This document shows positions 59,520 through 64,000 of a stretch of DNA of 64,000 nt, piece by piece. Both the position numbers and the translations under genes were made by a program. The stretch lies in the NCBI GenBank assembly GCA_036346225.1, contig JARFIW010001340.1, positions 496,001-560,000 on the forward strand. Reading direction: 5' to 3'. The stretch comes from Platerodrilus igneus (taxonomy: Eukaryota > Arthropoda > Insecta > Coleoptera > Lycidae). The notes beneath the pieces are model-generated. The model was not told the DNA's origin. It saw nothing but the letters and a program-made list of their open reading frames with translations, and ran no database searches. Every line of letters begins with the position of its first letter. The first letter of the stretch is position 1.

Positions 59520-59539
59520 TACAAATATAAACAACTATC

Positions 59540-59887
59540 TTATATCTTTACGCCCCATGCGTAGATTGTTGTACTATTAGGAATGATGTACCTTTTGTCA
59601 TCTTCCCTCGATAAACTAATTTTATTAATAAGCTGCGTATGCAAATCGTATTTTTTACTCCGGATACATACGCAGGCAAGTACTCGATACCATCCAAATA
59701 AAGGTTTGGATGCTTGGTGACTGTTAACATCCGCTTCCCTCGTGTACGCCCAGACACATCCCAGCCCATGAGCACCCCTGCGCATGCACACCCCCTGCCC
59801 ATGCGCACCCCTGCGCGTGCACACCCTGCCCATGCGTGCTGCCCATGCATCCCTCTCTGTGCGAGTGCTATTTCGGGGTAACGTCAC
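59540..59887 (-). CDS. Unknown arm ORF with GC-rich N-terminus (left arm)
   Basis: Overlapping minus-strand frames of 115 and 100 codons. In the second frame, MLTVTKHPNLYLDGIEYLPA is conserved in the diverged blocks at 57838-58560, so that frame is likely the genuine one; it ends at 59548. The upstream half is translated GC-rich minisatellite (59755-59855) and is probably not coding. The copy in the right arm is at 63634-63974. No domain recognised; the conserved LYL--IEYLP stretch suggests a small structured protein. Function unknown. Confidence 0.4.
   Translation of the reverse strand: MTLPRNSTRTERDAWAARMGRVCTRRGAHGQGVCMRRGAHGLGCVWAYTREADVNSHQASKPLFGWYRVLACVCIRSKKYDLHTQLINKISLSREDDKRYIIPNSTTIYAWGVKI
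59755..59855. repeat. GC-rich minisatellite in left arm
   Basis: Units of about 15 bp like CCCATGCGCACCCCTGC, strikingly GC-rich for this locus. The right-arm copy is at 63668-63765 with small unit differences. Confidence 0.85.
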
Positions 59888-60014
59888 AGCCTTTTATAAA
59901 TAAAGAACAATGTTATATACTATTATAAAATGTTTATTCTGACATTATACATAACAAATTTAAAAATATTTAATGCCAAGCATGGGGTTATTTAAACTTA
60001 ATTTTAATACAAAG

Positions 60015-60545
60015 TTATACACAGAAGACAGTCCTTTCTTTATGTTTGTTTGGAGTGGCTTTAATTTTATCTAATTTTATTCGCAGCTTAAAATTTAAAT
60101 CGATACCCAAGTCCTCTATCTCCTTTTCTAGCCAATAGTTTGATACATAGAGACCGTCTAGGTTTTCGAATTGTAAAATGTACCGAAGTTTGCCTCTATA
60201 TTTAAAGTCTTTGATTCCGCCGACAACCAGATCCATTCCTTCGTGTAATTCTTGCAGCTTGTGACAATCTTTTAATCGCAGCTTTCCCACTATATCCTGC
60301 ATACGTATCTTGTTAGCTTGATCGACTTCTTCTTGTCGGTATTGGAGGAAATCCTTATTTTCCCACAGACTGTTGCGTAGTTGCATGTCCACCACTTTTG
60401 GGAATATATGGTTGTTATAGGTTGTAAGACCCTCGGTTTTAAATGATCCAAAAGGTTCTTTACTAGGCAAATATACAATGTTTAACGGACCCGCTTTGCG
60501 TGTGGTGTACGCAAAGATTACGAAACCCGCATTCCTTAGTTCGTC
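60015..60545 (-). CDS. Unknown 182-codon arm gene, 5'-truncated copy (left arm)
   Basis: The minus strand is open from the arm's inner edge (60545, DELRNAGF) to the stop at 60015, ending in Cys-Val. The start codon lies outside the arm: the right copy begins MADNK at 62960, and those codons have no counterpart here, where a palindrome starts instead. The protein is charged, contains VDQANKIRMQDIVGKLRLKD and DGLYVSNYWLEKE, and has no signal peptide or membrane segment. I do not recognise it. This copy lacks the one-base shift seen in the right arm, so its body is intact but it has no start. Confidence 0.55.
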   Translation of the reverse strand, partial: DELRNAGFVIFAYTTRKAGPLNIVYLPSKEPFGSFKTEGLTTYNNHIFPKVVDMQLRNSLWENKDFLQYRQEEVDQANKIRMQDIVGKLRLKDCHKLQELHEGMDLVVGGIKDFKYRGKLRYILQFENLDGLYVSNYWLEKEIEDLGIDLNFKLRIKLDKIKATPNKHKERTVFCV

Positions 60546-60546
60546 T

Positions 60547-60612
60547 AAAAGGAAAAATTAATAGGTTAAGCCAGCGCCACGGCGCTGACCTAACCTATTA
60601 ATTTTTCCTTTT
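60547..60612. repeat. 66-bp near-perfect palindrome at the arm/spacer junction
   Basis: Two 32-base arms (60547-60578 and 60581-60612) with two mismatches around AC; outer part AAAAGGAAAAATTAATAGGT, inner part CAGCGCC/GGCGCTG. It begins one base after the left inverted-repeat arm ends and has no counterpart at the right arm. Confidence 0.9.
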
Positions 60613-60633
60613 ATCTAACCTAGGTCCACACTT

Positions 60634-60720
60634 GGTTTTTAATGGAAAAACTCATTAAAAAGCAATTAGTGCTAATGGGTTTTTAATGAGAAAACACATT
60701 AAAAAGCAATTAAGTCATAT
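60634..60720. repeat. Tandem duplication of a 44-bp unit
   Basis: Units at 60634 and 60678 share GGTTTTTAATG, AAAAC-CATTAAAAAGCAATTA. Confidence 0.85.
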
Positions 60721-60950
60721 GGTCATGCGGTCATATGGTCATGTGGTCATATGGTCATGTGGTCATATGGTCATATGGTCATGTGGTCATGTGGTCATAT
60801 GGTCATGTGGTCATATGGTCATATGGTCATGTGGTCATGTGGTCATATGGTCATGTGGTCATGTGGTCATGTGGTCATATGGTCATGTGGTCATGTGGTC
60901 ATATGGTCATGTGGTCATGTGGTCATATGGTCATATGGTCATGTGGTTAT
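60716..60950. repeat. 8-bp minisatellite (RTGGTCAT)n
   Basis: About 29 units, each ATGGTCAT or GTGGTCAT, with very few other changes (one GCGGTCAT, one GTGGTTAT). Long open frames across it are an artefact of the 8-bp period. Confidence 0.95.
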
Positions 60951-61704: not shown

Positions 61705-61705
61705 C

Positions 61706-62749
61706 ATGGATGTAACCCAAGATTTTGCAGGCATATTTAGCAAGATGGAGATGTGTAATTATTTAACTACAAAGCATAACTTTTGCTATAAGGGAGAATA
61801 CGAAGAAAAGTGTAATATTATAGTTGACAACGATAAAACTGCGGGATTGATTGTTTAACATGGCTAACAACCAATGCAAGAATTAAGATTTACAACAAAT
61901 TTGTGTGCCAGATAACAAGTCCTGGTGTTAATAAACAACTTGGTAATCATATACTAGATTTTTACGTTGTCCAGATGTACGTTTAAGGAAACATTTGCGT
62001 CTACTTTGGCCAAAGAACATGGTATTACGCGATTGGAAGCGACAATATACAACTGTGCAATTGGAAGCTATGTCAGTGCGGAACGGTGTATAAACCCTTA
62101 AAAGACTGTTTAACCTTATTGGAAGATAGTAAGTTATACTTCCTAAAGGCGCCAATGTACTCGGTACCACTTACCAAAATGTGGAGTAAGCTATCGGACA
62201 AGCTACAAAATAGCTGCTGTTTAGTGTATAATAACCTGCTACAGTACGTGTATTGGGGGAATGGCAATACAAAGAAATTGACAGGCTTGCAAATTAAGTT
62301 GTCCAAAAACCAGAGGAAAGGAAAAATTGATAAAGTATGTGCTTTCGGCTTTTAGTTTTAACTATTTACCTGTAAAATATTTGGAGATAGTAGAGGAGGA
62401 AGACAACCAAGATAAAATAAAAATCTTACACAAGTGCTACATTAAAGCAGGTAGTACATATTTTACACAATCTGCAACACCATATTCTACAATTCCAAAA
62501 GAAATAGTAATTTCGGACTTGGGATTGATAGATACGCCTAACATTCGTCCAGAGGTTGTACGACAACGCGTAAATATTGGTAGTAAACTCTATCCGTTTA
62601 CGCTAAAGGAAATTGCCCCATTATGTATACCATACGCTGTAAGTGGAAGGAAAAGACAGCTGGAATTAGAGGAAATGGATGCAAAAGGCGAAAATTGGAC
62701 TACATGGAAAACACTGCGACAATACGCGATCAATACAAAGATGTGTTAG
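61706..62749 (+). pseudogene. Large unknown spacer protein, interrupted by about four frameshifts
   Basis: Begins at ATG 61706 (MDVTQDFAGIFSKMEM) and can be followed through consecutive open frames to TAG 62749: 61706-61858, then about 61855-61970, 61990-62095, 62086-62340 and 62327-62749. In-frame stops are rare relative to frameshifts, so indels dominate the damage. Visible pieces include ARIKIYNKFVCQIT, EHGITRLEATIYN, YVLSAFSFNYLPVKY and SATPYSTIPKEI. The YNK ... TRLE spacing loosely recalls rolling-circle replication initiators, but no catalytic HUH motif is clear, so I do not assign it. At about 345 codons this is the longest protein of the unit. Frameshifts could be real decay or consensus errors. 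Confidence 0.5.
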
Positions 62750-62931
62750 ACAAAGAACATCTTATTAGAGAAAATGAGGAAGAATTAAAAGATTATTTTA
62801 TGTGTCGATGGACTGACTTAGATACATCTGGTTTCTACAAGTTGTATGCATTTGTGGTTAGTAAAAAAGACTCTTTTAGTTATGTAGGCGTCCTTGCGGA
62901 AAAGGATGGTACTAAATCCGTATATTTTTAA
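62704..62931 (+). CDS. Unknown ORF C in the spacer (75 codons), overlapping the large protein
   Basis: ATG at 62704 (MENTATIRDQYKDVL) to TAA at 62931, overlapping the end of the preceding frame by 46 bp. The second half reads CRWTDLDTSGFYKLYAFVV and SYVGVLAEKDG. It may instead be the C-terminal part of the large protein after another shift. The next ATG, of the arm gene, follows after 28 bp. Not recognised. Confidence 0.45.
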   Translation: MENTATIRDQYKDVLDKEHLIRENEEELKDYFMCRWTDLDTSGFYKLYAFVVSKKDSFSYVGVLAEKDGTKSVYF

Positions 62932-62959
62932 AAGGTTATTCTAAAACGTATTTATCAAA

Positions 62960-63506
62960 ATGGCAGATAACAAAGACGAACTAAGGAATGCGGGTTTCGT
63001 AATCTTTGCGTACACCACACGCAAAAGGGGGTCCGTTAAACATTGTATATTTGCCTAGTAAAGAACCTTTTGGATCATTTAAAACCGAGGGTCTTACAAC
63101 CTATAACAACCATATATTCCCAAAAGTGGTGGACATGCAACTACGCAACAGTCTGTGGGAGAATAAGGATTTCCTCCAATACCGACAAGAAGAAGTCGAT
63201 CAAGCTAACAAGATACGTATGCAGGATATAGTGGGAAAGCTGCGATTAAAAGATTGTCACAAGCTGCAAGAATTACACGAAGGAATGGATCTGGTTGTCG
63301 GCGGAATCAAAGACTTTAAATATAGAGGCAAACTTCGGTACATTTTACAATTCGAAAACCTAGACGGTCTCTATGTATCAAACTATTGGCTAGAAAAGGA
63401 GATAGAGGACTTGGGTATCGATTTAAATTTTAAGCTGCGAATAAAATTAGATAAAATTAAAGCCACTCCAAACAAACATAAAGAAAGGACTGTCTTCTGT
63501 GTATAA
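62960..63506 (+). pseudogene. Unknown 182-codon arm gene with native start (right arm), one-base frameshift
   Basis: ATG at 62960 (MADNKDELRNAGFVIFAYTT) lies 15 bp outside the inverted arm; the stop is at 63506. Around 63020-63027 this copy reads AAAAGGGGGTCC where the left arm reads AAAGCGGGTCC, a one-base gain that breaks the frame after about 22 codons. Apart from that it is nearly identical to 60015-60545. The change lies in a homopolymer and may be a sequencing error. It follows ORF C closely on the same strand, as if in one transcription unit with the spacer ORFs. Function unknown. Confidence 0.55.
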
Positions 63507-63633
63507 CTTTGTATTAAAATTAAGTTTAAATAACCCCATGCTTGGCATTAAATATTTTTAAATTTGTTATGTATAATGTCAGAATAAACATTTTATAATA
63601 GTATATAACATTGTTCTTTATTTATAAAAGGCT

Positions 63634-63974
63634 GTGACGTTACCCCGAAATAGCACTCGCACAGAGAGGGATGCGCATGGGCAGCACGCATGGGCAGGGG
63701 TGTGCACGCGCAGGGGTGCGCATGGGCAAGGGTGTGCATGCGCAGGGGTGCTCATGGGCTGGGATGTGTCTGGGCGTACACGAGGGAAGCGGATGTTAAC
63801 AGTCACCAAGCATCCAAACCTTTATTTGGATGGTATCGAGTACTTGCCTGCGTATGTATCCGGAGTAAAAAATACGATTTGCATACGCAGCTTATTAATA
63901 AAATTAGTTTATCGAGGAAGATGACAAAAGGTACATCATTCCTAATAGTACAACAATCTACGCATGGGGCGTAA
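63634..63974 (+). CDS. Unknown arm ORF with GC-rich N-terminus (right arm copy)
   Basis: Right-arm version of 59540-59887, in two overlapping frames. Small indels in the minisatellite (63668-63765) and near 63918 swap which frame is open at each end, so this copy joins the LYLDGIEYLP frame to a different terminus than the left copy does. Only that core frame is supported by its diverged relatives. Function unknown. Confidence 0.4.
63668..63765. repeat. GC-rich minisatellite in right arm
   Basis: Counterpart of 59755-59855, with slight unit and length differences. Confidence 0.85.
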
Positions 63975-64000
63975 AGATATAAGATAGTTGTTTATATTTG

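What the first reader, a model, noticed from the sequence alone, without database searches (positions are those of the whole stretch)
59520..64000. Virus-like unit: >1-kb near-identical inverted arms around a compact cluster of unknown ORFs
Two arms of at least 1,026 bp flank a 2,429-bp spacer. The spacer plus right arm holds a series of + strand ORFs (61132, 61396, 61706, 62704, 62960) with gaps of 1-30 bp or overlaps, quite unlike the gene-poor surroundings. None resembles a transposase, reverse transcriptase or integrase known to me. A DNA-polymerase-B-like remnant lies 3 kb away. A linear DNA virus or virus-derived transposon with long terminal repeats (in the spirit of bidnaviruses, adintoviruses or Polintons) would explain this, but no hallmark gene proves it.
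Basis: partly seen in the sequence, partly recalled or inferred. Interest (0 to 1): 0.85.

Follow-up and report, generated by a model that had tools for sequence, protein, structure and literature searches.

The report
Palindromic passenger of a virus-like transposon
A 12-kilobase stretch of what is probably an insect genome is a mirror-image element with one gene of unknown function; it shares its ends with a virus-like transposon (Polinton) of the same genome, and its relatives insert the way that transposon does, so it is probably a passenger of that transposon.

Summary
The inverted arms are real and larger than reported: about 4.5 kb at 99.2% identity, in a unit of about 12.2 kb (55781 to about 67991; the window ends at 64000). 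The 'cluster of unknown ORFs' is one 795-codon gene, broken here by frame changes; elsewhere in the same 2.71-Gb genome 19 of 57 scored copies span all 795 codons without a stop. It has no convincing match in Pfam, PHROGs, NCBIfam or PDB sequences.

The genome also holds Polinton/Maverick-type elements (two read: PolB, rve integrase, jelly-roll capsid, PLA2). The unit shares their terminal repeats and carries scraps of their PolB. Of five related palindromic units with both ends found, four have perfect 6-bp target duplications and one matches 5 of 6; the window copy does not match (2 of 6).

In 11 loci that hold a conserved hairpin-forming end, the inverted partner starts at 11 different places; three other palindromic loci lack that end. 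Best reading: a non-autonomous Polinton derivative whose palindromes arise by fold-back copying before integration in trans. 'Virus-derived, Polinton-like' is largely right; 'compact gene cluster' and bidnavirus are not supported. The gene's function is open.

The parts
55781..56270 (.). Outer terminal repeats of the left arm, starting AGTAG; homologous to terminal repeats of co-resident Polinton-type elements
   Evidence: (73-93% identity, most pieces 80-93%, to L038/L039/L040/L041)
55775..55780 (.). Flanking 6 bp TACACT; does not match the 6 bp at the far end (TAACAA, 2 of 6)
56071..60546 (.). Left inverted arm (mirror: 62974-67450, mostly beyond the window)
   Evidence: 4492 columns, 99.2%
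56451..57266 (-). Decayed C2H2 zinc-finger plus PolB N-terminal remnant
   Evidence: 68% to the open copy in L026; 37% to PolB1350 aa 82-323
58891..58986 (-). Second, diverged fragment of the 795-codon gene (aa 655-686)
58991..59131 (-). PolB scrap (aa 1231-1277 of 1350)
   Evidence: 70%
59522..59671 (-). PolB C-terminal scrap (left arm)
   Evidence: 65-76%
60018..60545 (-). Inverted partial copy of the 795-codon gene, aa 620-795
   Evidence: 93% to L023
60546..60613 (+). 68-bp hairpin-forming palindrome at the inner edge of the left arm; its right half is the conserved 5' end of the gene-bearing half
   Evidence: z -9.9 for 60540-60700; 38-base motif, 460 exact copies, control 0
60632..60709 (.). 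Imperfect palindrome beside the hairpin
   Evidence: 78 bp, 74%
60714..60953 (+). 8-bp tandem repeats (TGGTCATR) upstream of the gene
61132..63506 (+). The 795-codon gene, broken by frame changes in this copy
62974..64000 (.). Right inverted arm as far as the window reaches (continues to 67450; unit end about 67991)
63852..63976 (+). PolB C-terminal scrap (right arm, aa 1302-1342)
   Evidence: 70-86%

Best explanation
The unit is a non-autonomous derivative of a Polinton/Maverick-type element (adintovirus-like gene set) living in the same genome. A typical copy consists of a 'full' half (hairpin-forming 5' end, tandem repeats, one 795-codon gene, PolB scraps, terminal repeats ending ...CTACT) and a second half that is an inverted, 5'-truncated copy of the same thing, joined at or beside the hairpin-forming end. 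Both outer ends are therefore the same Polinton-type terminus. Inferred mechanism: during extrachromosomal, PolB-driven copying the inner end folds back, or its 3' end jumps to an internal place of the same or a sister strand, and copying runs out to the other terminus. This gives the molecule two functional ends. A Polinton-type integrase acting in trans then inserts it with a 6-bp target duplication. Shown here: shared termini and scraps, target duplications in related units, varied junctions, arm identity. Inferred: fold-back, and supply of polymerase and integrase in trans. The 795-codon protein is perhaps DNA-binding (C-terminal OB-like model, weak); its role is not known.
For: Terminal repeats shared with Polinton-type elements (73-93%, most pieces 80-93%) and PolB scraps. 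The element on C616 spans 16,327 bp, has AGTAG termini and a TAAGTC duplication, rve, jelly-roll and PLA2 domains and a PolB ORF. Six-bp duplications around whole palindromic units: C1070, C1092, C1474, C1010 6/6 and C131 5/6, against at most 4/6 in 30 mismatched pairings. Junctions: 11 loci with 11 different partner starts. Arms of one locus 95.6-99.9% (9 loci, median 99.3% over about 1.4 kb), different loci median 94.5% (222 pairs). The 5'-end motif occurs 460 times exactly, reversed control 0. Gene: 19 of 57 scored copies span aa 1-795 without a stop; dN/dS median 0.42 over 28 pairs of 8 open copies; relatives in Diabrotica and Nilaparvata records.
Against: The window copy's own flanking 6 bp do not match (2 of 6), and its two flanks look like different retroelement DNA, so this copy may have been rearranged. 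Three palindromic loci (L023, L028, L030) do not show the 5'-end motif in the stretches searched, and two of them (L030 = C1092, L028 = C1474) are among the five units with target duplications, so turn-around at this end is not the only route. GTTAAC (C1474) is its own reverse complement, so it could belong to the arms. Arm identity could also come from gene conversion; L024's arms are only 95.6%, inside the between-locus range, and one between-locus pair reaches 99.2%. L020 and L026 break at nearby places (aa 134, 125) and might share an origin. dN/dS used only open copies, which biases it down. No replication intermediate was seen. The ends of a sixth unit (C170, L025) were not found in the stretches fetched.
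Confidence: 0.7

Rival explanations
1. Chromosomal rearrangement: two ordinary insertions in opposite orientation, or one inserted into another, later joined by deletion or recombination and kept alike by gene conversion.
For: The window copy lacks a matching target duplication and has unlike flanks. Palindrome arms elsewhere are known to convert (general knowledge).
Against: In 5 of 5 other units with both ends found, the 6 bp on the two sides agree (four 6/6, one 5/6), so the whole palindrome entered as one piece. 11 junctions fall at or beside the same 5' end (those loci were chosen because they hold that motif).
Confidence: 0.16
2. Assembly or library artefact (fold-back reads).
For: Near-perfect palindromes are a known artefact of amplification and long reads (PMC6218980, search listing and abstract start only).
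Against: Arms differ by about 1% including indels; flanks differ on the two sides and, in related units, end in target duplications; many loci with separate junctions.
Confidence: 0.03
3. The palindromes are a standing design: a few palindromic master copies are copied faithfully, and fold-back is rare.
For: One between-locus pair at 99.2%; L020 and L026 junctions lie close together.
Against: All 11 junctions compared differ; in 8 of 9 loci the two arms agree at 98.5% or more, against a between-locus median of 94.5%.
Confidence: 0.15
4. A separate linear DNA virus (bidnavirus- or parvovirus-like) with its own hairpin ends, unrelated in mechanism to the Polinton.
For: Hairpin-forming end, long inverted ends, one unknown protein.
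Against: Outer termini, target duplication length and PolB scraps are those of the co-resident Polinton-type element. No convincing HMM match of the gene to any known initiator or capsid; a low-power profile test against filamentous-phage initiators gave no support.
Confidence: 0.05

Closest known systems
Polinton/Maverick elements
   Same: AGT-type termini and, in related units, 6-bp target duplications (vertebrate Mavericks: PMC8097293, passages read); terminal repeats shared with a co-resident element; PolB remnants
   Different: No integrase, capsid, protease, ATPase or intact PolB found; palindromic with multi-kilobase arms; carries a 795-codon gene that was not seen in the two large elements examined (L042+L040, L041+L043)
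Adintoviruses
   Same: The co-resident partner has PolB, rve integrase, jelly-roll capsid, PLA2 and a weak Ulp1-type protease match (that this is the adintovirus gene set is recalled)
   Different: The unit itself has none of these intact; adintovirus and Polinton were not told apart here
Foldback/Galileo-type transposons
   Same: Long inverted repeats of variable length with internal repeats (PMC3573991, search listing and abstract start only)
   Different: 6-bp target duplication in related units and Polinton-type termini; no DDE transposase found
Bidnaviridae
   Same: Encode a protein-primed PolB (PMC4061559, abstract start only); inverted ends (recalled)
   Different: No intact PolB in the unit; outer ends match Polinton-type elements
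Viral single-strand-binding proteins (baculovirus LEF-3, phage PRD1 P12)
   Different: Scores too weak for membership; no sequence match

Membership tests
Polinton/Maverick (autonomous) | Intact protein-primed PolB | tested here: not met
   Only scraps in the unit
Polinton/Maverick (autonomous) | rve integrase, capsid, protease, ATPase genes | tested here: not met
   No tblastn match (E up to 1e-4) of the partner's proteins in 55781-64000 or in the extension L021
Non-autonomous Polinton derivative | Termini shared with a Polinton-type element of the same genome | tested here: met
Non-autonomous Polinton derivative | 6-bp target duplication in related units | tested here: met
   4 of 5 units 6/6, one 5/6; a sixth unit undetermined
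Non-autonomous Polinton derivative | 6-bp target duplication in the window copy | tested here: not met
   2 of 6
Non-autonomous Polinton derivative | Mobilised in trans by the partner's enzymes | not testable with these tools
   Inference from shared termini only
Bidnaviridae | Intact PolB gene | tested here: not met
   Only scraps
Bidnaviridae | Parvovirus-like replication and capsid genes (recalled) | tested here: inconclusive
   No Pfam match of the unit's gene; a distant relative is not excluded
Filamentous-phage (CRI/gpII) replication initiators | Profile match to the initiator domain | tested here: inconclusive
   hhalign probability 0.1% (core) and 0.0% (whole) against 9 inovirus sequences; query alignment shallow (Neff 1.9)
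OB-fold single-strand-binding proteins | OB fold of the C-terminal part | tested here: inconclusive
Foldback/Galileo | DDE transposase | tested here: inconclusive
   No Pfam match of the 795-codon ORF; a distant one cannot be excluded

The most novel reading that the evidence does not exclude
The family is a true satellite of a virus-like transposon that remakes its genome as a new palindrome in each round: its single-gene half turns around at a hairpin end, and the 795-codon protein takes part in that turn-around or in replication. This would be an animal DNA satellite with a reproduction scheme that my searches did not find described for Polintons.
Probability: 0.22. Interest if true: 0.85.

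Novelty: new variant of a known kind. Interest (0 to 1): 0.6.

Why it matters
Polintons are discussed as ancestors of many eukaryotic DNA viruses (PMC7805220, abstract start), but how their DNA replicates and what parasitises them is poorly known (general knowledge). A high-copy set of palindromic derivatives, with arms about 1% diverged in most of the 9 loci measured and with mapped junctions, is a natural record of end repair during that replication, and makes fold-back copying directly testable. It also uncovers a protein family with relatives in at least two insect records (Diabrotica, Nilaparvata) and no assigned function.

Tried and rejected
Tried without result: IMG/VR scans with five queries; phage tblastn (none; best E 2); PDB sequence search (none; one chance row, E 0.7). 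Pfam, PHROGs and NCBIfam with the gene, its pieces or its core gave no hit or chance-level ones (among them Herpes_U47 at E 0.022 and AAA_23 at E 0.027); the relative P0019 hit phrog_33254 (unknown function) at E 3e-4 over its coiled-coil stretch. Homology search with piece 62282-62746: 5 candidates, none at E 1 or better. A motif-level likeness to filamentous-phage initiators was noticed by eye; a profile test of low power gave no support, so I dropped it. The model of P0019 was too poor to use (mean pLDDT 51). Structure searches with the P0004 model: no row at Foldseek E 0.001 or better; the best viral rows, two uncharacterised proteins at E 1.1e-3 and 1.8e-3 (prob 0.99, TM-score of the query 0.17 and 0.15), were not followed up.

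Not resolved: the host species; the fold of the N-terminal 400 residues; whether the gene ever sits in a complete Polinton; whether open copies are expressed. A genome search with the zinc-finger/PolB N-terminal piece and one with the integrase did not complete.

Literature: searches (listings and abstract starts) showed no paper on palindromic or satellite derivatives of Polintons; this is a statement about those searches only. Passages were seen of PMC11071296 (nothing used) and PMC8097293.

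Full report
OBSERVATION. The arms 59522-60546 and 62974-64000 are inverted copies, 1020 of 1029 columns identical. The window end cuts the right arm. Using the adjoining DNA of the same contig (L021), the arms extend to 56071-60546 against 62974-67450, 4492 columns at 99.2%. Beyond them lie diverged terminal repeats, and AGTAG termini at 55781 and about 67991, so the unit is 12,211 bp. The single-copy centre is about 2.43 kb.

ONE GENE, NOT A CLUSTER. The window is part of a 2.71-Gb assembly in 1723 contigs. 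Searching that genome with a relative found by homology (P0001) scored 139 of 17,724 first-look candidates, with open frames up to 804 codons. A search with the whole ORF scored 57 of 33,055 first-look candidates; 20 of the 57 have no stop, and 19 of these span residues 1-795. In the window the frame is broken many times (pieces). Among 8 open copies, dN/dS has median 0.42 (28 pairs, 0.26-0.77), with the bias that only open copies were used. Relatives come from Diabrotica virgifera (P0002), Nilaparvata lugens (P0015, a partial match) and unnamed sources. The middle of the protein is better conserved to P0019 than the C-terminal part (alignment, by eye).

THE PARTNER. The same genome has many DNA_pol_B_2 matches (115; 87 scored of 6,269 candidates). 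Two large elements were read in separate stretches: L042 with L040 (C616) and L041 with L043 (C90). Between them they carry an rve integrase (38.0 bits, cut-off 32.6), jelly-roll capsid pieces (115.5 and 31.3 bits, cut-off 27), a PLA2 domain (39.2 bits, cut-off 23.9), a sub-threshold Pox_A32-type ATPase (20.7, cut-off 22.8) and a sub-threshold Ulp1-type protease (16.7, cut-off 20.7). The PolB ORF of C616 scores 104.3 bits for DNA_pol_B_2 and is 71% identical to the PolB of L039, which hits that family at 109.8 bits. In one search itself the C616 ORF listed only zinc-finger families. The C616 element spans 16,327 bp, has AGTAG termini and a perfect TAAGTC duplication. This is a Polinton/Maverick-type element; vertebrate Mavericks have 6-bp duplications and AGT end motifs (PMC8097293, passages).

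THE LINK. The unit's terminal repeats match those of the PolB elements at 73-93%, most pieces at 80-93%. Its arms hold PolB C-terminal scraps and a zinc-finger/PolB N-terminal remnant. The inner 5' end shares the 14-mer TATCTAACCTAGGT with the Polinton terminal repeat. No integrase, capsid or intact polymerase was found in the unit.

INSERTION AS ONE PIECE. For five palindromic units with both ends found, the 6 bp on the two sides are TCATAG (C1070), CGGAAT (C1092), GTTAAC (C1474) and CACCAT (C1010), 6/6 each, and 5/6 for C131; 30 mismatched pairings reach at most 4/6. GTTAAC is its own reverse complement and so weaker evidence. One end of C1010 reads AGAAG instead of AGTAG. The window copy gives 2/6 and has unlike flanks. 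Ends of a sixth unit were not found in the stretches fetched.

THE INNER JUNCTION. A 68-bp hairpin-forming palindrome (60546-60613; DNA fold z -9.9 for 60540-60700) sits exactly at the inner edge of the left arm. Its right half is the conserved start of the gene-bearing half: a 38-base piece occurs 460 times exactly, and 0 times read backwards. In one search the window and 35 loci (L001-L035, some overlapping, most of the first 20 too short upstream to show it) were searched; 11 distinct loci hold this end. There the inverted partner starts at aa 620 (window), 134, 508, 532, 770, 125, 7, 183 and 689, in the terminal repeats (L027), or continues as a full palindrome as far as the short locus shows (L007). 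Between the end and the partner lie 1-40 nt (241 in L007, where the palindrome simply continues); in six loci, with gaps of 24-40 nt, this is largely an inverted copy of the end itself. Among the places that one search lists (a part of the 460) are three more head-to-head pairs with 52 bp between starts. Against this, three palindromic loci (L023, L028, L030) do not show the end in the stretches searched; L030 and L028 are the units C1092 and C1474 above. Over about 1.4 kb downstream of the gene, arms of one locus agree at 95.6-99.9% (9 loci, median 99.3%), copies of different loci at 91.8-99.2% (median 94.5%, 222 pairs). So palindromes probably arose separately and shortly before insertion in most of these loci.

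READING. These facts fit copying that turns around at an end and runs out to the other terminus, producing a molecule with two Polinton-type ends that a Polinton integrase can insert. The fold-back step and supply in trans are inference. Rivals are chromosomal rearrangement (hard to square with the target duplications, though the window copy itself could be one) and faithful copying of a few palindromic masters (hard to square with 11 different junctions).

NOVELTY. Non-autonomous derivatives of DNA transposons are a known kind; palindromic ones bearing a gene of their own and riding on a Polinton were not found in my searches (listings and abstract starts only). I file this as a new variant of a known kind.

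Noticed in passing
window 53370-53570 (-): Fragment matching an unnamed gene of the co-resident Polinton-type element (33-38% identity), outside the unit; probably another old Polinton scrap.
   Followed up: no
window 54947-55779 (-): BEL/Pao-like integrase pieces (named by recall) directly left of the unit's left end; the unit seems to sit in or beside an old retroelement.
   Followed up: partly
window 25199-26275 and 30403-31479; 11431-12931 and 15835-17337: Direct repeats of 99-100% identity 5.2 kb and 4.4 kb apart, as in young LTR retrotransposons.
   Followed up: no
L034:61-7937: Retroelement-like ORFs, one with a reverse transcriptase match (34.4 bits), right of the unit.
   Followed up: partly
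L033:1836-2306 and L038:979-3521: Chimeric joins: a Polinton gene fragment (o333) abuts the 795-codon gene's leader in L033; a PolB fragment lies beside the hairpin-side leader in L038 (96% over 102 bp). Copying may jump between partner and passenger.
   Followed up: partly
L042:7373-8104: A Psq-type helix-turn-helix match (27.1 bits) between capsid and ATPase genes of the C616 element.
   Followed up: no
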